From assembly GCA_009995425.1 (NCBI GenBank), contig JAACPN010000008.1:1-55496 (forward strand): DNA of 55,496 nt, given 5' to 3'. The notes under the pieces are model-generated. The model worked only from the letters and a program-made list of their open reading frames with translations. It had not been told where the DNA came from and ran no database searches. A program made the translations under genes and the position numbers. Source of the DNA: Legionella sp. GTDB lineage: Bacteria; Pseudomonadota; Gammaproteobacteria; Legionellales; Legionellaceae. Of this stretch, positions 17,178-27,862 are shown piece after piece; position 1 is the first letter of the stretch, and each line of letters starts with the position of its first letter.

Positions 17178-17486
17178 CTATTTACTCTTATTTAGAACTA
17201 AACCACGTTCCTTTGCCAAAACATGAATCGGCAACAAAGCTTCATTCGTCCGCCTGACTATCAAGTCTATTTTTTGCTCACCCAAGAGATCTTTTAGTTG
17301 AAGTAGCAAGTTAATTTTTTTTTCAAACAAATTATCAACACAAGGTGTCTCAATATAAAGATCAATGTCTCCGCCTCGAGCTTTATCATCACAACGTGAA
17401 CCAAATAACCATACTTCCGCCTGGCTCGAAATGTTTTTTTTCACGAGCTTCACGATTTCATGCTGATGGTGTTTGCTGAGTCTCAT
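17178..17486 (-). CDS. MNT-type nucleotidyltransferase antitoxin
   Basis: The 102-residue minimal nucleotidyltransferase carries the metal- and nucleotide-binding motif GSRCDDKARGGDIDLY (Gly29, Ser30, Asp40, Asp42) after WLF. In HEPN/MNT modules this protein neutralises the HEPN RNase, in characterised cases by adenylylating a Tyr near its active site. It starts three bases after the stop of the HEPN gene, so the pair forms one operon with the toxin first. Codon use and size are ordinary. The neighbouring queF-repeat and insertion sequence mark this as an accessory stretch. Confidence 0.85.
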   Translation of the reverse strand: MRLSKHHQHEIVKLVKKNISSQAEVWLFGSRCDDKARGGDIDLYIETPCVDNLFEKKINLLLQLKDLLGEQKIDLIVRRTNEALLPIHVLAKERGLVLNKSK

Positions 17487-17489
17487 AAT

Positions 17490-17978
17490 TTATAAAGCCC
17501 CAAGTTCAAGTATCAGATGAGGCTTGAAATATTTTACGATGCTCTTGAGCAAAGCTATCATTGCAGGCGCTGTTTCCCACGCTGCATTCAAAGCTTCTGC
17601 TTTATCTGATTCTTTGTTTGGATAATCATGTGCAAATGCATTACGAATTTCTCGTTGTTTTCTCCAGGCATCAACGGTATGAATAATCTTTCTCTTTTCC
17701 ATTTTATTCAAAACATCCAATGTACTCGCTGGCGTTTCTTCTTCAAGTAATAAAATACCTCTAAATATTTTGTTACCAATACAGTCTTGTAAATCTGAAT
17801 ATCTTACACGAAACGCATCCAAACCATCGATTAAATCATCACTCGGATCTTTCAGTTCTTTCCCATCTAAAGGAAAGTTAGCTTTAAGTCGCCGTAATGA
17901 AATCTGTAATCGTTCTGCGGTTCTAATTGCTTCAGACCAATTATTTAAGAAAATAGCTAAAATAGCTTGATCATACAT
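17490..17978 (-). CDS. HEPN-domain RNase toxin partner
   Basis: The product (162 residues from Met at 17978) is helical and ends in a HEPN RNase motif: Arg, four residues, His within RNAFAHDY, with the Tyr that MNT partners modify. I prefer the ATG at 17978, which has GAGGGGG five bases upstream; an in-frame ATG at 18002 has no Shine-Dalgarno. HEPN toxins cut RNA or tRNA when released. The next gene, three bases downstream, is the MNT antitoxin. This family is sometimes annotated as nucleotidyltransferase substrate-binding protein. The upstream region carries repeats that may serve in autoregulation. Confidence 0.82.
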   Translation of the reverse strand: MYDQAILAIFLNNWSEAIRTAERLQISLRRLKANFPLDGKELKDPSDDLIDGLDAFRVRYSDLQDCIGNKIFRGILLLEEETPASTLDVLNKMEKRKIIHTVDAWRKQREIRNAFAHDYPNKESDKAEALNAAWETAPAMIALLKSIVKYFKPHLILELGAL

Positions 17979-18000
17979 AGCAGCCCCCTCTTCAATCTTC

Positions 18001-18020
18001 ATAGCATAGCATAGCGCTAT
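18001..18020. promoter_or_regulatory. Tandem and palindromic repeat upstream of the HEPN gene
   Basis: Three direct ATAGC units (18001-18015) run into the palindrome ATAGCGCTAT (18011-18020). Read on the minus strand they supply TATGCT hexamers suitable as a -10 for the HEPN start at 17978, so repressor binding here would overlap the promoter. Role inferred from position. Confidence 0.4.
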
Positions 18021-18029
18021 CTTTTCATT

Positions 18030-18100
18030 ACTGCCGCATTAAACTCACATTCAAATCCAAAGCATGTTCAACCCAAGGCCCCGAGGTACGATACGGATTA
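18030..18100. repeat. Left copy of the queF 3'-end direct repeat
   Basis: These 71 bp match 26114-26184 at 68 positions in the same orientation; the only differences are at 18044, 18046 and 18048. On the minus strand it encodes a QueF C-terminus, EHALDLNVSLMRQ then TAA, against EHALDLNFNLMRQ then TGA in the intact gene. The match stops at the TA where the insertion sequence begins. It is the left boundary of the 8-kb accessory block. Confidence 0.9.
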
Positions 18101-19488
18101 TAGTCCCGGTCAAATGACTTGAGATTACATGTAAAAACGTGTAATATAATCAAGCCTGCGTCTTTATTTGTCTAATTCCAAGTCAGATGTCCAGAAATCA
18201 TCCTCTACCTGTCTTATTTTCTTAATTAATCCTGTGCACGTTTGTTCTGTTACACTGGAAAATGCCGTATCAAGTTGTAGTAATAAGTTAGCCATGGTGA
18301 AATCACAATTTTGTGCCACTTGATTTTTCACAATGCCCCAGCATGTTTCTATCGGCTGTAGTTCAGGGTGATACGGCGGGGTACGCAACACTTCATGTCC
18401 CGCCTGCTCTGCAATTAAGTCGATTGCATAGGTAGGCGAAGGTGCTATTTTTCTCAAAATTTCAATCATCTCCGGCTTTAGGCAGTCATCTGAGACCGGT
18501 ACATTATTGTTTGCCAACCAAAGCCGCATATATTCTTTTTTGCTGCTAGAGATCGGCGCAGAACAGGGGCTTAACACATTATGATAGGGCGCATTGTCCA
18601 TAATAATTAAAGAATTCTTCGGAATATTCGGCAGAAGTTTCTCCTGAAACCATTTACTGAATAATTCATAATTCACCTGTCCGTGATAGTCACCCGTTTT
18701 TTTTGTGCTCTTATAAGTTAGTTTCGCGTTGGGTACCCAGCCATCTTTTGTGATGGCATTAATAATAATCAGTCGCTCACCTTGCCCAGTTGGCTTTTGT
18801 ACGAGAGGTCCATCTTCCTCAAAATACCATGTAAAATCATTGCTGTGATTCTTATTTATGTAGGACTCATCAAAGTAAACCTCTGGACGAATAGTACCTG
18901 ATCCTTTTCGGTTTTCACGTTTTCGCCTTATGTATCGTTGCCTTGCTGCAATAACATGATCTTTTTCTTTGAGATGCTGCGAACGGATACCTTTCCCAAA
19001 CGCAAAGCCCCAGCGATCTAATGCCCGTCCGAGCGTTCTAATATTAAGATCATCTAATGGGATAGACTCTATAAGCTGTTGGCGCAGCAGATCCAATGTA
19101 ATAAACTCACCTTCTTTGTTGGCAGACCGAATATATTCCCTGATGATGCTTTGCAACGAATCTGGCATTACGTGATTTGGTCGTCCCTTAATTTTCGGTG
19201 GTTGCTCAAGTAATTTCGGATCTTTATTAAAATCAGCCATCACACGCCTGACTGTCACTAGCCCTATTCCTAGCGCATGTGCCGTTCTCTCCATGCTTGG
19301 GCGTCCTTGCTCTACAAGATTTGTTTTGGTATGATCAAAATAGTCCTTGATGCGTACAATTGCTTTTTTGATATCCGCTGAAATGGCACGTCCTTGTTGA
19401 TTCAAGCTTAGGTACTCCTATTGATAAATGCAGGCTTGATTATAATATACGTTTTGACATGTAATCTCAAGTCATTTGACCGGGACTA
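18101..19488. mobile_element. Complete IS630-family insertion sequence
   Basis: The element is 1388 bp with perfect 32-bp terminal inverted repeats (18101-18132 and 19457-19488, starting TAGTCCCGGTCAAATGACTT). It is flanked by TA on both sides (18099-18100 and 19489-19490), the target duplication of the IS630/Tc1 group. It carries one intact transposase gene. Perfect ends and an open gene suggest recent insertion. Confidence 0.93.
18164..19405 (-). CDS. IS630-family transposase
   Basis: The 413-residue transposase has an N-terminal helix-turn-helix region (RTAHALGIGLVTVRRVMADF) and a DDE catalytic domain. The acidic residues appear in VYFDESYIN, LIIMDNAPYHN and PPYHPELQPIETCWGIVKNQ. It is uninterrupted and lies wholly within the inverted repeats, so it is probably active. 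It cuts and pastes the element at TA dinucleotides. No second copy of the element is present in the window. Confidence 0.93.
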   Translation of the reverse strand: MNQQGRAISADIKKAIVRIKDYFDHTKTNLVEQGRPSMERTAHALGIGLVTVRRVMADFNKDPKLLEQPPKIKGRPNHVMPDSLQSIIREYIRSANKEGEFITLDLLRQQLIESIPLDDLNIRTLGRALDRWGFAFGKGIRSQHLKEKDHVIAARQRYIRRKRENRKGSGTIRPEVYFDESYINKNHSNDFTWYFEEDGPLVQKPTGQGERLIIINAITKDGWVPNAKLTYKSTKKTGDYHGQVNYELFSKWFQEKLLPNIPKNSLIIMDNAPYHNVLSPCSAPISSSKKEYMRLWLANNNVPVSDDCLKPEMIEILRKIAPSPTYAIDLIAEQAGHEVLRTPPYHPELQPIETCWGIVKNQVAQNCDFTMANLLLQLDTAFSSVTEQTCTGLIKKIRQVEDDFWTSDLELDK

Positions 19489-19490
19489 TA

Positions 19491-19652
19491 GGAAATGTAT
19501 CGATTATGGATACTAGTATTTGGCCAACACAAGGCGCTGCCAGTCCTTACCTTACGATTACAGCTCTTGCGTTAAGGCTTGCAGATTACTTATTGAAGCG
19601 AAGCCGTTGCTCGTGACGAACACTAGTTTGACACATTATTTAATCTATATAA
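19491..19652. other. Unassigned sequence right of the insertion element
   Basis: These 162 bp separate the insertion sequence from the exporter gene. No open frame, RNA gene or terminator is clear. A TTGACA on the plus strand near 19630 lacks a well-spaced -10. The segment does not continue the queF homology seen on the left, so the repeat ended at or within a few bases of the insertion point. Confidence 0.3.
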
Positions 19653-21416
19653 TTAAAATGCATAGTGTACATGGCTATTTCGCTGTTTTTCCCATAAATG
19701 CAAATATAAGCCTTGTTTATCAAGTAATGCTTGATGAGTTCCCATTTCTTGAATTGCTCCGTTATTCATAACAACGATTAAATCTGCATTCATAATTGAT
19801 TGTAACCGATGCGTAATAACAATAAGCGTGTGCTGTTCTCTCATACTCTCCAACGTTTCTTCAATCATCCCAGCACTCAATGAATCAAGTGCTGATGTCG
19901 CTTCATCCAAACACACGATGGCAGGATTACTAATCAAGGCACGTGCGATACAAACTCGCTGACACTGCCCACCAGAAAGTCCTGATTTATGCCCAAAAAT
20001 CGTTTCATATTGCTTTGGAAATAACATAATATCATCATGAATACCTACTTTTTTTGCTACCGCAATAACTTCTTCATCTGTTGCATCCAGTTTCCCCATT
20101 CTTATATTGTCCTGAATACTGCATTCAAACAATTTAGGTTCCTGCATGACAACGCCAATATTCGATAGCAATGACTGTTCTGAAACATGCTTATAATTAA
20201 TCCCATCAAATAAAATTTGACCAGAATGAGGGGTTATTTCTTTCAATAACAGTTTTAAAAAGGTGCTTTTTCCAGAACCATTTGGACCCACAATTGCAAC
20301 CATTTTCCCCGCATCTATGGTCAAATTAATTTCATTAAATTGACTTCTATTACTATAGCCAAAGATGACCTGATCAAAACAAATTTTATTTTTTAACCCA
20401 GACAGAGGCTGTGTTTTTTTTATTCTTGGTTGCTTCTTTTTGAATAGGCTTTCAATGTTCGAAAGACTTCTAGCACTTTGCATAAGCAAAGGAATGCGTG
20501 TGCTCAGCCCATTAACAGCCGTAACAAAATTTTGAAGCAACACCACAAACCCAACAAATCCCCCTGAATTTAAATTACCATAAAAAATCAGCACGCTACC
20601 GACAATCATGACAATCATCAAGATAAATTGAGCCCCTATCACAAAGGAACCACCTGTGAAACCTGAGCTAATATTGTGTCGATAGGTCGCTGTTCTAGCA
20701 TGTATTAATTTTATTTTAAATAAATTCCGTTTGTATTTTTTTAGTAAATTCAAACGAATTTCATCATGCATCATGACACTTTCGTGAAGATCATGACGTA
20801 ATTTTTTTTCAATACCCTCTTTTGAGATGGCTAGACTCGTTGTTTTTTTTGCTAAAAAATGAGGTAAAAACATGAGGGCCATCATAGAAAATAAACTAAT
20901 TAAGGCCATAACCCAATTAAAATAAAACATTAAAACAGCGCTCAAAAATACCGTCAAAATATTACCCAGAACATACCATATAATAAACAATGATGTACTT
21001 TCGACGCTGGCAAGATGCTCACCAAAATGAGTCATGACATCACTAGGATCGATACCGTCGGAATGGTTTAGATTTTGTGCTAAAGAAAATAGTTTATACT
21101 TTATTTTAGAAAATACTTTTACATTCAACTTTGAACCTATGACAATCGTCATGGCCTGAGAAATAAATATAAGAAAAAAATTAAGCGCAATAATACCTAT
21201 TGCCATGATCAATAACGATGTATTTTTTTTGTATATAACATCATTAAATAACCATTCAAAAATGATAGGTTGTGTCCCCTGATATACAACCCATAATACA
21301 ATCGATACAATTACACCGATCAAAAGCATAGGATAGTGTTTTTGATAATGAAAGAGTGTGCTGATATAGGTAAAAACACCTGAAGTATTTAATGATCCAT
21401 CTGTAGAGTCTTCCAA
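19653..21416 (-). CDS. ABC exporter, fused permease and ATPase
   Basis: The 587-residue half-transporter has an N-terminal six-helix export domain (residues about 25-310) and a C-terminal ATPase. The ATPase shows Walker A GPNGSGKST, Q-loop MQEPKLFE, signature LSGGQCQR, Walker B IVCLDEATSALD and the H-loop His in VITHRLQS. It would act as a homodimer exporting a lipid, peptide or small molecule from the cytoplasm. The start is probably a TTG preceded by AGGGGGG six bases upstream. It diverges from the outer-membrane protein gene at 21619. Being inside the repeat-bounded block, it may export the product of the neighbouring pterin/glycosyltransferase genes; that link is inference. Confidence 0.9.
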   Translation of the reverse strand: MEDSTDGSLNTSGVFTYISTLFHYQKHYPMLLIGVIVSIVLWVVYQGTQPIIFEWLFNDVIYKKNTSLLIMAIGIIALNFFLIFISQAMTIVIGSKLNVKVFSKIKYKLFSLAQNLNHSDGIDPSDVMTHFGEHLASVESTSLFIIWYVLGNILTVFLSAVLMFYFNWVMALISLFSMMALMFLPHFLAKKTTSLAISKEGIEKKLRHDLHESVMMHDEIRLNLLKKYKRNLFKIKLIHARTATYRHNISSGFTGGSFVIGAQFILMIVMIVGSVLIFYGNLNSGGFVGFVVLLQNFVTAVNGLSTRIPLLMQSARSLSNIESLFKKKQPRIKKTQPLSGLKNKICFDQVIFGYSNRSQFNEINLTIDAGKMVAIVGPNGSGKSTFLKLLLKEITPHSGQILFDGINYKHVSEQSLLSNIGVVMQEPKLFECSIQDNIRMGKLDATDEEVIAVAKKVGIHDDIMLFPKQYETIFGHKSGLSGGQCQRVCIARALISNPAIVCLDEATSALDSLSAGMIEETLESMREQHTLIVITHRLQSIMNADLIVVMNNGAIQEMGTHQALLDKQGLYLHLWEKQRNSHVHYAF

Positions 21417-21526
21417 AGAAATCCCCCCTATTTTATAAGGTCTTATCTATCTTATGAAGATCACACAGGTTTTTCAATCAAATGGTACCTCTAGAGTTGA
21501 CTACAAGCTGCAAACAACTTTGTTAA

Positions 21527-21555
21527 TTGACGCTTTCAAAAAAAAAATCTATATG
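21527..21555 (+). promoter_or_regulatory. Promoter of the outer-membrane protein gene
   Basis: TTGACG (21527-21532) is separated by 17 bp, largely an A tract, from TATATG (21550-21555). A second possible -10, GATAAT, begins at 21555. The intergenic region is shared with the divergent exporter gene. Confidence 0.45.
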
Positions 21556-21618
21556 ATAATGTTTTACTGCTCTTCTATCTGTAAAAAAAAAATAAAAAAT
21601 AAATTAAGGATAATTTAA

Positions 21619-22374
21619 ATGAATATAGTAAAAAGTACGGGCTTCGGTATTTCAACTGCAGCATTGCTTTCTCTATCTCTTGCCCATGCAGGCACGATGG
21701 GCCCTGGCTCAACACGTAGTTTTATTCCCTTCGTTGGTGGAGAAGCAGCATATACTTGGAATCAAATACAGCAACTATCGTTTAATCAATTTGTTACGGA
21801 TAATTCAACGAAGGGCTGGGGTGGTCGTTTGTCTTTAGGTATGCGTCTTTCGTACTCTGAGCGGCTGAGCTTTACCAGTGAGGTTGGTGGTGGGTATTAT
21901 GGTAACGTGGCGGGCAATTTAGATGCCTCACCTACCGTTCAACCTGAAGGCGTAGATGCGGGTGTCCTTGGCCACACCAACTTCAATATTGATGGGTATG
22001 ATGTATTGATGGGCGCCATGTACCAATACAACAAAATTGATATATTTGGGAAGTTTGGATTTATGGCGCAAAACCTACGTGCACATACAACAGCCACACT
22101 CAGTGCTGTTATTCCTGGTGGAACATTAAGTAAACTGACGGATGTAAAACAAAGTGTCACGCAAATTTTGCCTGAAATCAAAGTAGGTGGAATTTACAAC
22201 GTCAATGAAAATTGGGGGATGTCTCTTGCTTACATGCATGTATTTGGTTCGTCGATGAAAACAAATAAAACCATGATAGGTACAAATACGACGTTGACCA
22301 TGTCTAACACACAGAACAATCAAAACCCAACACTTGATTCTATTATGTTTGGTCTAATGTACAGCATTGCGTAA
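21619..22374 (+). CDS. Outer-membrane beta-barrel protein
   Basis: The 251-residue protein has a signal peptide cleaved after AHA (about residue 24), then alternating amphipathic strands rich in Gly, Tyr and Trp. Examples are RLSLGMRLSYSERLSFTSEV, IFGKFGFMAQNL, EIKVGGIYNVNENWGMSLAY and the last strand LDSIMFGLMYSIA. This fits an eight-stranded OmpA-like/OMP_b-brl barrel common in Legionellales. AAGGA stands eight bases before the ATG. Function unknown: surface structure, adhesion or a small pore are all possible. It converges on the DHPS-like gene with a 12-nt gap. Confidence 0.8.
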   Translation: MNIVKSTGFGISTAALLSLSLAHAGTMGPGSTRSFIPFVGGEAAYTWNQIQQLSFNQFVTDNSTKGWGGRLSLGMRLSYSERLSFTSEVGGGYYGNVAGNLDASPTVQPEGVDAGVLGHTNFNIDGYDVLMGAMYQYNKIDIFGKFGFMAQNLRAHTTATLSAVIPGGTLSKLTDVKQSVTQILPEIKVGGIYNVNENWGMSLAYMHVFGSSMKTNKTMIGTNTTLTMSNTQNNQNPTLDSIMFGLMYSIA

Positions 22375-22386
22375 ATTTACGATAAC

Positions 22387-23154
22387 TTAGACGGAGGCTG
22401 TAGTTTTTAACCTGCTCTGAGTTACCATTTTTTTTACCTCGATGACATCATGTGTTCTGATATAATCGACACCCTGTGAAATAATTTGTTTTGTTAATTC
22501 GGTGTTTAATACACCGGCGGTACGTGGCGCCACAATGAACACGGGAGCCATTGTTTGAAACAGAGGGATATGCGCAATAATTTCTTCTTGGATGCGCGGC
22601 TTCTCCTGTTCTGGTGTATTCGGATGCCACATACCTAAATTTGGATCAATAGCTAAAACTTCAACATTTCGTTTGTACAGAAGCGACAACGTTTCTTCGA
22701 AAAAAGTCAACGCGTCATGGATATTGAATTTTGAGTATGGTTTATTTCTTAAATCATAAGGATTTTTTGCTGGCAAGTAGTTCACAACCACTTTTCTACG
22801 CGCATTTGCAAGCTCACTTAAAAAAGAATCAGGGAAGTATGTTGAAGTATAATTAATAACCTGAACATGTTCCAAATACATTAATGCTGTTTCGATCGAC
22901 CACGTATCAAGAGATAAAGATGAAATATTTTGCTGCTGCGATAATATTAGAGGTAATTTCAGTCTATTCTGTTCATCTATATCAGAAAGGATACTTGTTT
23001 TAGAACCAGACGAACGCCCGCCGATGTCAATATAATCCGCCCCATTGTTCAGTAATTGCTTTATTTTTAATAAAGCCAATTGCGGTGAACGAACAACTGC
23101 GTCCACTTGCGGTGATTCTTTTGACAAGTTAACAACAGAAAATAGTTTAATCAT
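22387..23154 (-). CDS. Divergent dihydropteroate synthase-like pterin-binding protein
   Basis: The 255-residue protein follows the DHPS TIM-barrel motif order: VVNLSKES (Asn9), GADYIDIGGRSSG (Asp43), LSLDTWS (Asp83), VINYTS (Asn101), VLAIDPNLG (Asp170) and IRTHDVIEV (Arg233, His235). The pterin-pocket Asp, Asn and Arg/His are kept. The STRPG pyrophosphate/pABA loop is replaced by SSGSK, and the late SRKS reads APRT. It may therefore bind a pterin without making folate, as proposed for mycobacterial FolP2. It is coupled (ATGA overlap) to the DHFR-like gene. An acquired sulphonamide-insensitive DHPS is the alternative, less likely given the lost loop. Confidence 0.78.
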   Translation of the reverse strand: MIKLFSVVNLSKESPQVDAVVRSPQLALLKIKQLLNNGADYIDIGGRSSGSKTSILSDIDEQNRLKLPLILSQQQNISSLSLDTWSIETALMYLEHVQVINYTSTYFPDSFLSELANARRKVVVNYLPAKNPYDLRNKPYSKFNIHDALTFFEETLSLLYKRNVEVLAIDPNLGMWHPNTPEQEKPRIQEEIIAHIPLFQTMAPVFIVAPRTAGVLNTELTKQIISQGVDYIRTHDVIEVKKMVTQSRLKTTASV

Positions 23155-23666
23155 ACGTACTGACTTAATGGATTTTTGTAATGATACGTGGAAAAATCAG
23201 CTGTTTTTTTGAGCTGTGTTCGTGGCCAATGCTCAATAAGGTCTAAGGGAAAAACAGTATCGCCACTATAGCTTTTAGTCATAATAGATAATAGGAAATC
23301 ATCGATTAAGTGGTAAACAAGAAATAATTTGGCTATTTCAGCACCACCAATCATGTAACACGACTTATTTTCCGGTAAATTTTTCAGGTTTAAAAACTCA
23401 TTGAGGCTGGAAACAAAAATAACTGTGCGAGGATGGTCTTGGCTTGACTTATACAAAGATTTTGAAAAAACAACACAATAGCGCTCATGAAAAAATGACC
23501 TCGGCATTTCTTCATACGTTGTAGCGCCGGTGATCATAATTTGCTGTGCTGTTGTTTGACGAAAAAAGGCTACCTCCTCTGGGAAGGTCCAAGGAAGACG
23601 ACGCTTTTCTCCAATGATGCCGGTTGGATCACAAGCGATAAGGCCCGTTATTTTTCTATTCCACAT
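23151..23666 (-). CDS. Dihydrofolate reductase-like protein
   Basis: The 171-residue product starts MWNRKITGLIAC. It has DHFR landmarks: GIIGEKRRLPWTFPEE, where Glu31 takes the place of the substrate-binding Asp27 of E. coli; ITGATTYEEMP, where the NADPH-contacting Arg44 is Ala; IGGAEIAKLF for the cofactor diphosphate; and SGDTVFP. The fold and acid are intact, but cofactor contacts differ. A reductase for a pterin or related heterocycle is plausible. The first frame codon (TTG, 23678) lacks a good ribosome site. It is first gene of the two-gene operon with the DHPS-like gene and diverges from the Nudix gene across about 100 nt. Confidence 0.78.
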   Translation of the reverse strand: MWNRKITGLIACDPTGIIGEKRRLPWTFPEEVAFFRQTTAQQIMITGATTYEEMPRSFFHERYCVVFSKSLYKSSQDHPRTVIFVSSLNEFLNLKNLPENKSCYMIGGAEIAKLFLVYHLIDDFLLSIMTKSYSGDTVFPLDLIEHWPRTQLKKTADFSTYHYKNPLSQYV

Positions 23667-23774
23667 CACGTATCCCAAACAAAGGGGTGAAACGTTGCAT
23701 ATTCTAGTAAATAACCATTAAACTGTATTATATTTTTTTTTTCAAGTCTAAATTTTTTTAACAACAGGATGTTG

Positions 23775-24314
23775 ATGAAAGACAATGATTCGAACTACGA
23801 TTTTGCAGTAAGCGCATTTATTACCCATAAAGAGCGATTGCTTTTACTTTCTCACAAAAAACTGAACACATGGATTAATGTAGGTGGTCATATAGAGGCT
23901 AATGAAGACCTAGAGATGGCACTTTGGCGTGAAGTTTTAGAAGAAACAGGTCTAAAACAAAGTGAATTGCAATTAATCGAACCCACGCAAAAACATGAAA
24001 GACCTCAGCAAAAAAATACATATGCAAAAATATTACCTATGCCATTTGATATAACGGTTTATTTTGTAGGTAACAATCCCCATCATCGACACGTTGATTT
24101 TGCTTACTTAATGAAATCATGCACCGACAACGTCACTTACAATAAAAATGAGTCCAATCAGTTCGGATGGTTTAACCTTCAAGAATTAGAGAGCATGCAA
24201 GACGAACTTTTTCCAAATGTATATGCTCAATCTGTTTTTGCCCTCAATCAATTATCTCATACCAAGATTGATGCTCCGGAGAAAATTTATACGGCTCAAG
24301 AGGACGTTATCTAA
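23775..24314 (+). CDS. Nudix hydrolase
   Basis: The 179-residue product contains a complete Nudix box at about residues 38-60: GHIEANE, then seven residues, then REVLEETGL. It should therefore hydrolyse a nucleoside-diphosphate-linked compound. AGGA sits five bases before the ATG at 23775; an ATG six bases upstream is too close to it. A pterin-triphosphate pyrophosphatase role (as NudB in folate synthesis) or hydrolysis of a nucleotide sugar are both attractive given neighbours; the sequence does not decide. Its TAA overlaps the next ATG by one base (TAATG), coupling it to the glycosyltransferase. Confidence 0.88.
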   Translation: MKDNDSNYDFAVSAFITHKERLLLLSHKKLNTWINVGGHIEANEDLEMALWREVLEETGLKQSELQLIEPTQKHERPQQKNTYAKILPMPFDITVYFVGNNPHHRHVDFAYLMKSCTDNVTYNKNESNQFGWFNLQELESMQDELFPNVYAQSVFALNQLSHTKIDAPEKIYTAQEDVI

Positions 24315-25318
24315 TGGCTGATTTTTATCAAACACCCACATTATTTACATTAAGTAATATTTGCTTTGATGAAAATAAAGTATTTTCACACTTTTTTACA
24401 CAACCTGTTGTTATTGTTATACCTTGTCATTTTAGACATCTTGAAAATAAGGCTGTTTTTAATTTATTAAACGAATTAAAACCTATTAATTATATTACAG
24501 AAATCATTGTTGTCGTTAATGGTCAGGTACATCCGAGCGACGACGTCACGTACGTCTTGAAGTCACTCGATAAAAAATGCACTATTTTGTATGAATCTTC
24601 TGGGAATAAACCCGGAAAAGGATTAGCTCTTTGCCTTGGCTTTTCTTATCTTTATAAAAAATATAAAAATAAAGCTATTGTGGCTACCCTAGATGCTGAT
24701 TTAAAAAATTTTACGCCAACACTTTTACTGAAATTAATTTATCCAATGCAAACACTAAAAGCGGATTTCAATAAAGGTTACTATACGCGCTACTCCGATA
24801 AAAAATTAGACGGAAGATTGACTCGACTGCTGATTTTCCCCTTACTACAAGCGCTTTTATTACAGAAAAAAAATGATGAATTATTGTTATTTTTAACAGA
24901 GTTTAGATACCCTCTATCTGGCGATGTGGCTTTTAAAAGTCATCTTATTCCACAACTCGACTTGGCTAGTAATTGGTCGTACGATCTATCCTTACTGGTT
25001 TCGGTCCATAAAAACAAATCCTGTCTTAATTTATTTCAAACAGAGATCACACAAAACTATCAGCATCCTCACCGCGATTTAAATCACGCTTCGGACTTTG
25101 GTTTAATGGAAGTCGCACGTGACATTATTGCCTACTTGCTGAATACATTCCCGGTAGATACCGAGCTCTTAGCAAAAAATTACGAGCTTTCTGGGCAATG
25201 TTTTGTGAATAAATATGAAAAACTGGCTCTATTTAATAACTTGTTTTTTTCAAAAAAAAATGAAGAGCAATTGATAGCACTGATAATATCTGAAATTTTA
25301 AGCCATTCGATAGCATAA
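24314..25318 (+). CDS. GT81-like glycosyltransferase (glucosyl-3-phosphoglycerate synthase family)
   Basis: The 334-residue GT-A fold protein has VVIVIPCHFR (32-41), NKPGKGLAL (98-106), the metal-binding DAD in ATLDADLKNF (127-129), KGYYTR (154-159), DGRLTRLLIFPLL (166-178) and YPLSGDVAF (199-207), then WSYDLSLLV. This motif order is that of GpgS, which joins glucose from a nucleotide sugar to 3-phosphoglycerate. It also shares features with mannosylglycerate synthases. The next gene, one base downstream, is a matching phosphatase, supporting a two-step route to a glycosylglycerate-type product. A different acceptor, such as a phosphorylated pterin, is possible given the divergent operon. Confidence 0.78.
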   Translation: MADFYQTPTLFTLSNICFDENKVFSHFFTQPVVIVIPCHFRHLENKAVFNLLNELKPINYITEIIVVVNGQVHPSDDVTYVLKSLDKKCTILYESSGNKPGKGLALCLGFSYLYKKYKNKAIVATLDADLKNFTPTLLLKLIYPMQTLKADFNKGYYTRYSDKKLDGRLTRLLIFPLLQALLLQKKNDELLLFLTEFRYPLSGDVAFKSHLIPQLDLASNWSYDLSLLVSVHKNKSCLNLFQTEITQNYQHPHRDLNHASDFGLMEVARDIIAYLLNTFPVDTELLAKNYELSGQCFVNKYEKLALFNNLFFSKKNEEQLIALIISEILSHSIA

Positions 25319-25319
25319 T

Positions 25320-26126
25320 ATGATGCAGAGAATATTATTTTCCGACGTTGATGGATGCATTATAAATGAACTGAATCCTAATTTTTCGCTCATTCAATCC
25401 ATTATCAATCAATTAGATGATGCCGGCATTGTGCTTATTTTAGCAACCGCTAAAACGGCACATGAAATCATCTCGCTCAATCATCACTTAAATTTACCCG
25501 GACCATTTATCATCGAAAATGGCGGAGGCATACTTTTTCGACATCCTTTGGCGACGCTTTATCCATCTCACGACGTGATATGCATGGATGATTATTATTT
25601 ACTAAAGTCAGGCAACATAAAGCCCGATCTTGCCTTATTAAAAACGTTTAGCCCTATTAGTTCAATATTGACCCAAATGATTCAACTGCCTCATGATATT
25701 AATTTATCTGCAGAAAATGAAAAATTATCTAAAATTAGATTTTTTACGGAACCTATTTATATCAAAAATTTATCAAAATTCGAACTAAAACGCTTGAAGA
25801 AACAACTCCACAAACATAATATTTATTATGACTCCAGTGATTCTTTTCTTCAAACATATACCTCTCGAAACAACAACAAAGGGGCCGCCCTGAAGTTTAT
25901 ACTCTCCACAATATATGCAGATATAAAATTCACGACGTTTGCAATTGGCGACTCTTTTAATGATTTTTCCATGTTAAATCGTTGCGATCATGCTTATTAT
26001 ATTTTAAATAAAACGTTAAAATCCCCCTCCCCACAATGGAATTTAATCAGCGAAAAAGGATTTTCAGGTTGGAAAAAATCGATTGAGGCCATTACCTCCT
26101 ACGATTATTTATCACTGCCGCATTAA
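25320..26126 (+). CDS. HAD phosphatase of the mannosyl/glucosyl-3-phosphoglycerate phosphatase type
   Basis: The 268-residue protein is a Cof-type (IIB-cap) HAD hydrolase. It has the nucleophile motif FSDVDGC (Asp9, Asp11), LATAKT, IIENGGGILF, a helical/sheet cap (about 85-200) carrying SRNNNKGAALKFIL, and the late acid motif AIGDSFNDFSML. This layout matches MPGP/GpgP enzymes that dephosphorylate the product of the adjacent synthase. The stop lies inside the right-hand queF repeat and the gene overlaps the convergent queF 3' end by 15 bp. Its last codons therefore belong to the repeat, which ties the cluster to the queF junction. Confidence 0.8.
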   Translation: MMQRILFSDVDGCIINELNPNFSLIQSIINQLDDAGIVLILATAKTAHEIISLNHHLNLPGPFIIENGGGILFRHPLATLYPSHDVICMDDYYLLKSGNIKPDLALLKTFSPISSILTQMIQLPHDINLSAENEKLSKIRFFTEPIYIKNLSKFELKRLKKQLHKHNIYYDSSDSFLQTYTSRNNNKGAALKFILSTIYADIKFTTFAIGDSFNDFSMLNRCDHAYYILNKTLKSPSPQWNLISEKGFSGWKKSIEAITSYDYLSLPH

Positions 26127-26954
26127 ATTAAAATTCAAATCCAAAGCATGTTCAACCCAAGGCCCCGAGGTACGATACGGATTAATATCAAGTCCACCAC
26201 GCCTGGTATAACGCCCATATACCGTTAAATAATCAGGTTTGCATTGTGCCATAATATCAACAAAAATCCGTTCAATGCACTGCTCATGAAAACCTTGATG
26301 ATTTCTGAACGAAACAATATATTTTAAAAAACTTTCAGGAGAAATACGCGGCCCGCGATAAGATATCTGTACGCTCCCCCAATCAGGCTGATTGGTAACA
26401 GGGCAGTTAGAACGGAGTAAATCAGAACATAAACGCTCTTCGATGATCTCATGACTGACTTGCAATAACGTTGGTTCCACTTCATAAACCGAACAAGCAA
26501 TATCTAAATCATCCACACACGTACCATCAAATCGCGGTTGGATCTCATAAACATGCCAGCCCTGTGATAGCAGAATTTTCACAACCACTTGGCTTTGTAA
26601 GCATGCCGCTAAATCTTCTGTAATCAGCGCCTCTACAGCAGCAACGGATGCAAATACGGTTTGATTCAGTGAATTAAAATACAGCTTAAGCGATTTAGAT
26701 TCGATCAAATTTGGAGAACAGCAATCATAGGTGATGCTTGCCGTTGCAACGCACGGTTTACCTTTGGGATTAAGCCACGACACTTCATAATGATTCCAGG
26801 TATCAAACCCAACAAAAGGCAACGCATCAGGATCTAAGCCAAGCTCCTGCCATTTAGGGCCACGTGCAATCGGAAACAAGCGTCCGGGATTATACTCAGC
26901 GTCATAAGATGTTGCTTGCCCTAATTCACCATAACCCCCATTTTGATTATTCAT
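26112..26954 (-). CDS. queF: NADPH-dependent 7-cyano-7-deazaguanine reductase
   Basis: The 280-residue enzyme reduces preQ0 to preQ1 in queuosine synthesis, the E. coli-type long (two-domain) form. It has ESKSLKLYFNSLNQT, the catalytic Cys in LLRSNCPVTNQPDWG followed by the Asp, and FLKYIVSFRNHQGFHEQCIE. The C-terminus ends LDLNFNLMRQ. Its last 71 bp are duplicated 8 kb away at 18030-18100. The gene is intact; the duplicated copy codes a slightly different C-terminus, so one of the two ends may have been brought in with the accessory block. Confidence 0.95.
   Translation of the reverse strand: MNNQNGGYGELGQATSYDAEYNPGRLFPIARGPKWQELGLDPDALPFVGFDTWNHYEVSWLNPKGKPCVATASITYDCCSPNLIESKSLKLYFNSLNQTVFASVAAVEALITEDLAACLQSQVVVKILLSQGWHVYEIQPRFDGTCVDDLDIACSVYEVEPTLLQVSHEIIEERLCSDLLRSNCPVTNQPDWGSVQISYRGPRISPESFLKYIVSFRNHQGFHEQCIERIFVDIMAQCKPDYLTVYGRYTRRGGLDINPYRTSGPWVEHALDLNFNLMRQ
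26114..26184. repeat. Right copy of the queF 3'-end direct repeat
   Basis: These are the last 71 bp of intact queF, repeated at 18030-18100 with three substitutions. Same-strand orientation and location at a gene 3' end are typical of attachment-site duplications of integrative elements, though no recombinase gene is present between the copies. Confidence 0.9.
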
Positions 26955-27068
26955 GGATGGATCCTTTTGAAAAAATAAGGCATTCTAACATATGAAGCAA
27001 ACATAATTTAATACGCTATACTAACATTATAGTACTCAGTAATTACGGACCACTAACTGGAGCACACG

Positions 27069-27260
27069 ATGAGCGACTTAAAATCAAAGATTCCTGATCT
27101 AAGCGAAATTGGCAACATGGCAGGCAAACTTTTTAAAGATGTTAAAAAAAGTGTTTGTGAAATTGCCGAAGATTATAAAGCTAAACACAAAAAATCTGCA
27201 GCACCTAAGGCTAAAGCGGAAGCCCCTAAAACTGCAGCCAAAAAGAAAGAAGACAAATAA
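27069..27260 (+). CDS. Small Lys/Ala-tailed protein
   Basis: The 63-residue protein begins MSDLKSKIPDLSEIGNMAG and ends in a basic tail of alternating Lys, Ala and Pro. A GGAG Shine-Dalgarno precedes the ATG by seven bases. The tail resembles histone H1-like nucleoid or RNA-binding proteins, but the acidic and hydrophobic N-terminal half argues for an amphipathic helix instead. No family recognised. A possible -10 TATACT lies at 27017-27022. Transcription probably ends in the hairpin at 27274. Confidence 0.6.
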   Translation: MSDLKSKIPDLSEIGNMAGKLFKDVKKSVCEIAEDYKAKHKKSAAPKAKAEAPKTAAKKKEDK

Positions 27261-27265
27261 GTACG

Positions 27266-27862
27266 TTATCGGAAACATGTGATGTGGCTAAACCCATCGC
27301 ATGTTTTTCCAAAACATAGCTCCTGATCACCTAAAGTTTGAGTTGCCGGAAGATTTGCTTGTTTGTCGTAAGACGTCGCACGTCGGTAACCGTGCTGGCG
27401 ACAAAATGCATCGGCCGCTCCCTTTCCACAACCGCTATGATTTTTGTAACACCAATCCACACGATAATTTTTAAATCGAGGCAACACAAAATCATGTGAA
27501 CGGTACGCATAAACCGGTGGCTCTGCTTTTTTTACACTTTCCTCACATGAAATAAACATAAAACCATCACAACGCCAGCCTTTGCACTGGTTTGTTGAAG
27601 CGGGATAGCGTGTCAACCCCACATTATGCTCAATACGCGCTTTCGAAGCCTTCTCATACCCCATTGAGCGACAATATTGAGATGCCAATTCTAATCCGCA
27701 AACTTTATGATCTTCTGAACAATAGTTGAGGCGCATACCATGCTCGAGCGGGTACCAAAAATCCCGATAAACATCATTCTGAGATGACGCCGCATAAGAA
27801 GACAGGCTTGAACACAGCAGTGGTAGTAACACAGCCGTAAATAAACGATAACGTTGCAACAT
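27266..27862 (-). CDS. Secreted protein with two six-cysteine repeats
   Basis: The 198-residue protein has a signal peptide (LFTAVLLPLLCSSLSSYAAS, cleaved near residue 24). Two modules of 59 residues follow (48-106 and 138-196) in which six Cys have identical spacing: C48, 55, 64, 93, 98, 106 and C138, 145, 154, 183, 188, 196. Each module carries a CG..(A/L)A..(Y/F)CR..GY pattern and ends CDGF..I.C. Three disulphides per module in the periplasm or outside the cell are expected. I do not recognise the family; a binding or carbohydrate-recognition role would suit the fold style but is not shown. Confidence 0.75.
   Translation of the reverse strand: MLQRYRLFTAVLLPLLCSSLSSYAASSQNDVYRDFWYPLEHGMRLNYCSEDHKVCGLELASQYCRSMGYEKASKARIEHNVGLTRYPASTNQCKGWRCDGFMFISCEESVKKAEPPVYAYRSHDFVLPRFKNYRVDWCYKNHSGCGKGAADAFCRQHGYRRATSYDKQANLPATQTLGDQELCFGKTCDGFSHITCFR
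27274..27309 (+). terminator. Intrinsic terminator for the small Lys-rich gene
   Basis: AACATGTGATG pairs with CATCGCATGTT (one U-G pair and a bulge) and is followed by TTTT. It lies entirely inside the antisense coding region of the next gene, encoding that gene's last residues (CDGFSHITCFR), so the sequence serves both. Confidence 0.55.

What the first reader, a model, noticed from the sequence alone, without database searches (positions are those of the whole stretch)
22387..26126. Divergent pterin-enzyme and glycosylglycerate-enzyme operons forming a possible new pathway
Seen: a DHFR-like/DHPS-like pair (coupled by ATGA) faces a Nudix/GT81-like/HAD-phosphatase trio (coupled by TAATG and a one-base gap), with about 100 bp between them. 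Known: DHFR, DHPS and one Nudix enzyme belong to folate/pterin synthesis, and GpgS plus GpgP make glucosylglycerate. In mycobacteria a non-canonical DHPS paralogue (folP2) lies next to gpgS. Inference: the five genes make a modified pterin, for example a glycosylated or glyceryl-linked one, or the DHPS-like and DHFR-like proteins process an acceptor for the glycosyltransferase. The neighbouring ABC exporter and outer-membrane protein could move the product.
Basis: partly seen in the sequence, partly recalled or inferred. Interest (0 to 1): 0.87.

Follow-up and report, generated by a model that had tools for sequence, protein, structure and literature searches.

The report
Non-folate pterin-enzyme island in Legionellaceae
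A small block of genes that has moved between relatives of Legionella carries altered copies of two folate-making enzymes beside genes for a sugar-acid, and one altered enzyme seems to keep its pterin pocket but not the pocket for the usual folate building block, so it may make an unknown pterin compound.

Summary
The five genes are present as described. The DHPS-like protein is not FolP, Sul or mycobacterial FolP2: an ordinary folP is in the same genome, and its three copies (two near-identical) keep N22, D56, D96, N115, D185, R255, H257 (pterin, Mg/pyrophosphate) but lose F28, P64, F190, S219 and K221. In a 39-row tree it sits on a very long branch away from FolP and Sul3. GT81-like and HAD proteins keep motifs of glucosylglycerate synthesis. 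The block is a low-GC lateral island in 2 of 8 genomes of the genus, 94.0% identical in DNA against 86.6-88.0% in flanks. A third genome, of another genus, has DHFR-like, DHPS-like and Nudix in one row and no GT81 match. So Nudix belongs with the pterin pair, and GT81/HAD is separable. I favour a non-folate pterin-modifying trio joined on one island to a glucosylglycerate pair. That the five make one glycosylated pterin is open. No fold was predicted; substrates are unknown.

The parts
22387..23154 (-). DHPS-like protein, 255 aa: pterin and Mg/pyrophosphate residues kept, pABA-site residues lost
   Evidence: PF00809 8e-13; TIGR01496 67.1 bits against cut-off 162.6; residue table; tree
23151..23678 (-). 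DHFR-like protein (start TTG as listed; GTG 23669 or ATG 23666 also possible), overlaps the DHPS-like gene by ATGA
   Evidence: PF00186 1.2e-21; acid at the position of the catalytic Asp is E in the window and D in G018
23667..23768 (.). 102-base AT-rich divergent spacer (from ATG 23666) between the two gene rows; presumed promoters
   Evidence: sequence; promoter scan of 19400-27300 no better than shuffles, 26 found, mean 29.8
23769..24314 (+). Nudix hydrolase with intact Nudix box (read by eye)
   Evidence: PF00293 1.3e-14; recurs with the DHFR/DHPS-like pair in G018, 54%
24314..25318 (+). GT81-like glycosyltransferase of the glucosyl-3-phosphoglycerate synthase type, 334 aa
   Evidence: NF040724 9.6e-38, 130 bits, below cut-off 700; motifs PGKG, DxD, KGYY, GRxT, PLSG in the alignments with GT81 relatives and GpgS
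25320..26126 (+). HAD-IIB phosphatase of the mannosyl/glucosyl-3-phosphoglycerate phosphatase type
   Evidence: NF001218 1e-25, 90.9 bits, below cut-off 362; alignment A5
21619..22374 (+). possible outer-membrane protein, 251 aa, part of the shared island
   Evidence: no family hit; 94% identical in G005, same place
19653..21416 (-). ABC exporter with fused membrane and ATPase domains
   Evidence: PF00664 3.7e-14 and PF00005 3.1e-34; in the island also in G005
19488..19625 (+). remnant of the 3' end of a GMC oxidoreductase gene of which G005 keeps more, itself apparently broken near its start
   Evidence: tblastn 89% over 46 aa; frames
18099..19490 (-). insertion sequence with 61-nt terminal inverted repeats at the island's left edge; DDE_3 transposase 18164-19405
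18024..18100 (+). left copy of a 77-nt direct repeat of the queF 3' end
   Evidence: 94% to 26108-26184, spacing 8084
26108..26184 (+). right copy of the 77-nt direct repeat, the 3' end of queF itself (queF is on the - strand)
   Evidence: QueF domains

Best explanation
A laterally acquired island joins a non-folate pterin module to a glucosylglycerate module and an exporter. Shown by sequence: the DHPS-like enzyme keeps residues that hold 6-hydroxymethyl-7,8-dihydropterin pyrophosphate and Mg/pyrophosphate and has lost those that build the pABA site; it stays with the DHFR-like and Nudix genes in two genera in two different layouts; the GT81/HAD pair keeps motifs of glucosyl-3-phosphoglycerate synthase and phosphatase. 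Inferred: the DHPS-like enzyme still splits off pyrophosphate to give the dihydropterin cation and passes it to a nucleophile other than pABA (or to water); the DHFR-like enzyme reduces the dihydropterin product; the Nudix enzyme cleaves a diphosphate of the same route or clears a by-product. Whether the glucosylglycerate part feeds the same product or only travels on the same island is left open; I lean slightly to shared use within this genus because seven genes of the 6.6-kb block are intact and under selection in both genomes.
For: Ordinary folP in 14 of 14 genomes looked at, G000 included, so the paralogue is free to change. Residues in 3 DHPS-like rows (two of them 96% identical) against 99 other DHPS rows: N22, D56, D96, N115, D185, R255, H257 kept in 3 of 3; F28 to P/L, P64 to S/Y, F190 to M/V, S219 to P, K221 to T/R in 3 of 3. 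In the 99 others K221 is K in 98 (one gap), F28 is F in 97, P64 P in 97, F190 F in 98, S219 S in 97. R63 is also lost (G/C), but it is R in only 63 of the 99. Published Sul complexes: Asn101, Asp173 and Lys212 of Sul1 bind the pterin, Asn12, Ser17, Phe18 and Ser52 of Sul2 sit in loops 1 and 2, and Ser214 and Lys213 of Sul2 touch pABA (PMC10328974, section 8 read); I equate them with N115, D185, K221, N22, S27, F28, T62, S222 and K221 by motif, not by a structure of this protein. The Nudix is in 3 of 144 genomes of the family, the same three as the DHPS-like gene. Layout in G018: transporter-like protein, DHFR, DHPS, Nudix, the first two junctions overlapping by 4 bases. GT81 motifs align with solved GpgS (roles of D136, H258, T187 in passages of PMC2581804). 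Island: GC 0.33-0.39 in the five genes, 0.34-0.37 in three 2-kb bins against 0.39-0.46 in the other 24; dS 0.07-0.21 in seven island genes against 0.56 in queF, the one flanking gene measured.
Against: K221 also touches the pterin, so its loss could mean weak pterin binding or no catalysis. GT81 has no match in G018, so the glucosylglycerate part is not needed by the trio there. The best solved match is Sul3 (E 2.1e-18), an active DHPS. Only three genomes carry the family in these searches, and two of them share 94% identical island DNA, so co-conservation rests on one independent comparison. No fold, substrate or product is known.
Confidence: 0.45

Rival explanations
1. Two unrelated functions sit on one island: GT81 and HAD make glucosylglycerate as a compatible solute, and the DHFR/DHPS-like pair with Nudix does a separate pterin job. 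They were packed together by lateral transfer only.
For: In the stretches fetched, GT81-HAD-IIB pairs with a sugar phosphorylase and no pterin genes stand on plasmids of Leisingera and Pseudoalteromonas, and GT81 near HAD-IIB without the phosphorylase in Psychrobacter; GT81 in 2 of 144 against Nudix and DHPS-like in 3 of 144; G018 has the trio without a GT81 match.
Against: Nudix and GT81 overlap by one base in both genomes, which couples a trio gene to the sugar gene; seven genes of the block are intact with dN/dS 0.13-0.41, though its GMC oxidoreductase is lost or broken.
Confidence: 0.35
2. A foreign, drug-insensitive DHPS/DHFR pair that bypasses antifolates, as sul and dfr genes do.
For: Best solved-structure match is Sul3, best plasmid match is sul3 at 27%; DHFR and DHPS together are the two antifolate targets; the block is mobile.
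Against: Far below every listed Sul and Dfr cut-off; residues of the pABA side and the lysine that Sul enzymes use are lost; Sul3 lies in the 35-row group, not with the DHPS-like rows; a Nudix gene and GT81 have no place in such a pair.
Confidence: 0.1
3. The DHPS-like protein is no longer an enzyme but a pterin-binding or regulatory protein, or the block is decaying.
For: Loss of K221 and R63; the GMC oxidoreductase of the island looks broken in G005 and is a remnant in the window.
Against: dN/dS 0.126 for DHPS-like and 0.178 for DHFR-like; seven active-site residues unchanged across two genera.
Confidence: 0.1

Closest known systems
Dihydropteroate synthase FolP (EC 2.5.1.15)
   Same: Family PF00809, pterin and Mg/pyrophosphate residues, RxHD end motif
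   Different: Below the equivalog cut-off (67.1 against 162.6 bits); pABA-site residues and K221 lost; a second, ordinary folP is in the genome
Sul1/Sul2/Sul3 sulfonamide-insensitive DHPS
   Same: Acquired, divergent DHPS on mobile DNA; Sul3 is the best solved match
   Different: Sul enzymes keep a pterin/pABA lysine, pABA contacts and the DHPS reaction (PMC10328974, abstract passages and section 8); this one lacks the lysine and most pABA-side residues
Actinobacterial FolP2 beside gpgS
   Same: A second DHPS that does not replace folP, and a DHPS gene in the neighbourhood of a GpgS gene (PMC1971073 and PMC5379747, passages)
   Different: No sequence kinship beyond the family (2vp8 E 0.63); no DHFR-like or Nudix partner is named in the passages seen
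GpgS/GpgP glucosylglycerate synthesis (GT81 and HAD)
   Same: Gene pair, GT81 motifs, HAD-IIB phosphatase
   Different: 334 aa against 403-406 in the three marine relatives aligned, 28-29% identity; joined by overlap to a Nudix gene; no sugar phosphorylase among the neighbouring genes named here
Bacterial pterin glycosides such as cyanopterin
   Same: Would be the nearest known product class if the five genes act together
   Different: No homologue of a pteridine glycosyltransferase was tested for; resemblance of idea only

Membership tests
FolP dihydropteroate synthase | NCBIfam equivalog cut-off TIGR01496 | tested here: not met
   67.1 against 162.6 bits; G018 copy 84.7
FolP dihydropteroate synthase | pterin and Mg/pyrophosphate residues (N22, D96, N115, D185, R255, H257) | tested here: met
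   3 of 3 DHPS-like rows; roles partly recalled, partly by motif
FolP dihydropteroate synthase | pABA-site residues (F28, P64, F190, S219, K221) | tested here: not met
   lost in 3 of 3 rows
FolP dihydropteroate synthase | makes dihydropteroate | not testable with these tools
   no assay
Sul sulfonamide-insensitive DHPS | Sul1-4 model cut-offs | tested here: not met
   best is Sul3: 43.2 bits (window) and 52.1 (G018) against 475
Sul sulfonamide-insensitive DHPS | groups with Sul in a tree | tested here: not met
   DHPS-like rows plus L041 split from the 35 rows that hold Sul3, support 98/93; only Sul3 was in the tree, long branches warned of
Sul sulfonamide-insensitive DHPS | Phe-Gly in the alpha-6 region | not tested
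   that region does not align cleanly; no structure could be made
Mycobacterial FolP2 | sequence kinship to FolP2 | tested here: not met
   2vp8 E 0.63
DHFR | PF00186 and acid at the catalytic position | tested here: met
   77.5 bits against 25; E in the window, D in G018
Folate-pathway NudB | NCBIfam NF006961 cut-off | tested here: not met
   24.2 against 103 bits
GpgS (GT81) | NCBIfam equivalog cut-offs | tested here: not met
   NF040724 130 against 700; NF010496 46.8 against 262
GpgS (GT81) | DxD, GRxT acceptor motif, PLSG | tested here: met
   roles of D136 and T187 from passages, equated by motif
GpgP/MPGP phosphatase | TIGR01486 subfamily cut-off | tested here: not met
   88.6 against 164.75 bits
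GpgP/MPGP phosphatase | HAD family with DxD and GDxxND motifs | tested here: met
   PF08282 65.7 against 20.9 bits; alignment, motifs named from recall

The most novel reading that the evidence does not exclude
The island makes and exports a new conjugate: the DHPS-like enzyme joins the dihydropterin cation to a glycerate, phosphoglycerate or glucosylglycerate acceptor in place of pABA, the DHFR-like enzyme reduces it to the tetrahydro form, and GT81 and HAD build or trim the sugar-acid part. In G018 a simpler acceptor would be used.
Probability: 0.15. Interest if true: 0.8.

Novelty: new variant of a known kind. Interest (0 to 1): 0.5.

Why it matters
A second folP gene thought to serve a pathway other than folate was reported by 2007 (PMC1971073, passages), and none of the passages I saw names its reaction. 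This block offers such a gene with a clear residue-level change, partners that recur in another genus and a neighbouring exporter, so the question of what such enzymes attach to the pterin becomes one that can be tested.

Tried and rejected
Viral contigs: no relative of the DHPS-like protein (52 pattern matches, none confirmed) or of the Nudix (59, none confirmed). Phages: 4 records match the DHPS-like protein, at 25-27%, named sul or dihydropteroate synthase. Plasmids: 923 records match the DHPS-like protein, all under 60% identity, the 15 listed being sul3 at 27%; Nudix 13 records, best about 30%; GT81 11 records, 26-28%. Genome contigs: 72 loci by two peptide patterns, of which 2 are true relatives (96 and 49%); the other 70 match at 34% or less, and all 70 score higher against the G000 FolP than against the DHPS-like query. 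A pattern scan can miss relatives at 30-40%, so rarity is not proven. Draws from the class (369) and phylum (398) gave no further relative with A1: the one extra hit, G496, has ordinary FolP motifs; A2 in the class draw matched only G000. These draws are samples, overlap, and did not list G005 or G018 as matches.

Gene neighbours in the 72 loci: Nudix hits in 3, DHFR in 3, GT81 in 1, HAD in 1, the island loci L037 and L038 included. The profiles came from 3-5 rows, so plain members of these families may be missed, and many loci are cut short by contig ends; I draw no strong conclusion from it.

Is the DHFR-like gene the only DHFR of G000? Cannot be told: PF00186 finds only this one there, but the resident folA place (next to surA-pdxA) runs into a withheld stretch. 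G005 and G018 do have an ordinary folA.

Residue table: from BLAST matches to the G000 FolP at E 1e-5 or better, I left out the loci that hold the island, identical rows and ORFs under 200 aa; 99 other rows stayed, among them unusual ones such as L041 and L059. E. coli numbers come from the alignment to 1aj0. Roles of residues other than those are recalled. Tree: 39 rows, 28 of them hand-picked from the others, plus Sul3; the join of the DHPS-like rows with L041 is flagged as a meeting of long branches and I do not use it.

The DHFR-like and HAD proteins were not searched in the 144 genomes. Anti-phage defence models: Nudix PDC-S07 4.7e-7; the ABC protein hits ATPase models, best mad3 5.4e-30, as a general ABC ATPase would; the 102-aa protein at 17178 hits PDC-S09 3.1e-6; DHPS-like, DHFR-like, GT81 and HAD none. 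Rejected as an explanation. Promoter scan: no excess over shuffles.
Full report
Observation.

The DHPS-like protein is a paralogue. PF00809 finds an ordinary folP in 14 of 14 genomes searched and a second, weak match only in G000, G005 and G018. Among the 144 genomes of the family, profile A1 at E 1e-12 matches 6; three are the DHPS-like genes (E 1e-147 or better) and three are ordinary FolP by their motifs. In a tree of 39 rows the three DHPS-like rows form one group on a branch of 3.1 changes per column. Together with the odd actinobacterial row L041, a join that the program flags as doubtful, they are split from the 35 rows that hold the resident FolP, archaeal DHPS and Sul3. So it is neither a recent copy of folP nor a Sul3-type enzyme. 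Its nearest kin are unknown.

Active site. Numbered on E. coli DHPS through, the three DHPS-like rows keep N22, D56, D96, N115, D185, R255 and H257. They all lose F28, P64, F190, S219 and K221, and carry Y at 116, W at 191 and H at 192. K221 is K in 98 of the 99 other rows, the remaining one a gap. R63 is lost as well, but only 63 of the 99 others have R there. In Sul crystal structures an Asn, an Asp and a Lys bind the pterin, loop 1 and loop 2 residues including a Phe serve the pyrophosphate side, and the same Lys with the next Ser touches pABA (PMC10328974, section 8 read); I match these to N115, D185, K221, F28 and S222 by motif. The simplest reading is an enzyme that still holds dihydropterin pyrophosphate but accepts something other than pABA. 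The loss of K221 is a caution, since that lysine also touches the pterin.

Partners. DHFR-like keeps an acid where DHFR has its catalytic Asp (E in the window and G005, D in G018); the position of the folate-tail Arg57 is R in the window and G005 and H in G018 (roles recalled). The Nudix profile matches 3 of 144 genomes, the same three. In G018 the order is a large protein with HEAT repeats (membrane-type by eye), DHFR-like, DHPS-like, then 180 bases and Nudix, all on one strand. In G000 and G005 Nudix stands across the divergent spacer and overlaps GT81. So the trio has held together through a rearrangement, while GT81 is in 2 of 144.

Sugar part. The GT81 profile of five rows matches solved GpgS proteins (7pdo E 5.6e-10), with PGKG, DxD, KGYY, GRxT and PLSG in common; by motif these include the threonine that holds the acceptor's carboxylate and the aspartate that holds the metal in GpgS (PMC2581804, passages). 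The window protein alone finds no GpgS in the solved set at E 0.01, so this rests on the profile and on NCBIfam. The HAD protein is of the MPGP/GpgP type below the curated cut-offs. On three plasmids fetched, GT81 lies beside HAD-IIB, two with a sugar phosphorylase next to them and none with pterin genes in the stretch. Glucosylglycerate, or a close glycosylglycerate, is the likely product of this pair.

Island. Between G000 and G005 the stretch 19488-26093 is 94.0% identical, the four larger flanking matches 86.6-88.0%. dS is 0.07-0.21 for seven island genes and 0.56 for queF, the one flanking gene measured. Three 2-kb bins inside have GC 0.34-0.37; the other 24 have 0.39-0.46. In G004, the relative with the next most similar QueF after G005, queF is followed by two other genes and then degP, without the island; in G003 the queF and degP matches lie about 48 bases apart, in G007 about 0.4 kb and in G001 about 1.1 kb; in G002 and G006 the stretch held shows no degP, so nothing can be said. 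In the window a 77-nt repeat of the queF 3' end brackets an 8.1-kb segment, and an insertion sequence fills the left edge next to a remnant of a GMC oxidoreductase. G005 keeps more of that gene, but it looks broken near its start, or the assembly has an error there. The intact shared part is ABC exporter, possible outer-membrane protein, DHPS-like, DHFR-like, Nudix, GT81, HAD, with dN/dS from 0.13 to 0.41. In G018 the trio has the GC of its surroundings (0.35-0.38 against 0.36 for the 20-kb stretch), so no sign of recent arrival there.

The mycobacterial parallel. Passages of PMC1971073 state that folP2 of high-GC Gram-positives clusters with cell-wall genes and that the M. leprae copy does not replace E. 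coli folP. A passage of PMC5379747 lists a DHPS and a GpgS gene near LOG genes. Two unrelated non-canonical DHPS genes near GpgS would be a hint of common chemistry; it is no more than that.

Verdict. Ordinary antifolate resistance is unlikely. A non-folate pterin trio is the best reading (0.45), with a two-function island close behind (0.35). The joint glycosylated or glyceryl-linked pterin remains open (0.15). My searches for print on Legionella with glucosylglycerate, pterin glycosides and DHPS in gene clusters listed nothing on this arrangement; there I saw listings only, plus passages of PMC13259868. The other paper searches likewise listed nothing on it.

Noticed in passing
window 18099-19490: Insertion sequence with 61-nt terminal inverted repeats (95% complementary) and a DDE_3 transposase; it borders the island and a GMC oxidoreductase remnant.
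   Followed up: partly
window 18024-18100 and 26108-26184: 77-nt direct repeat of the queF 3' end, 94% identical, 8084 bases apart, bracketing island plus insertion sequence; no integrase seen among the ORFs in between.
   Followed up: partly
window 17178-18002: Small gene pair: a nucleotidyltransferase-domain protein (PF18765/PF01909) and a 170-aa partner without Pfam hit; looks like a toxin-antitoxin pair of the MNT/HEPN kind (label by eye).
   Followed up: no
L041 2221-3045: Odd DHPS-like protein in an Actinomycetota MAG, beside genes that look like a DNA polymerase subunit and a DNA-uptake protein (by eye), with a changed loop 2 and N-A in place of N-D at 115-116; another candidate non-folate DHPS, though it keeps the lysine.
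   Followed up: partly
L120 1705-2193 and L031-L034: The ordinary FolA of five genomes of the family reads LLCHLP where G005 and G003 read LPWHLP, so the tryptophan of that motif is replaced by cysteine.
   Followed up: no
L035 10958-13717: 919-aa membrane-type protein (by eye) with HEAT repeats overlapping the DHFR-like gene of G018 by 4 bases, with a cNMP-binding protein upstream; possible transporter for the trio's substrate or product.
   Followed up: partly
L036 5559-8081: Ankyrin-like and kinase-like genes (names by eye) between queF and the island in G005, and between queF and degP in G004; in the window the island's HAD gene adjoins queF instead.
   Followed up: no
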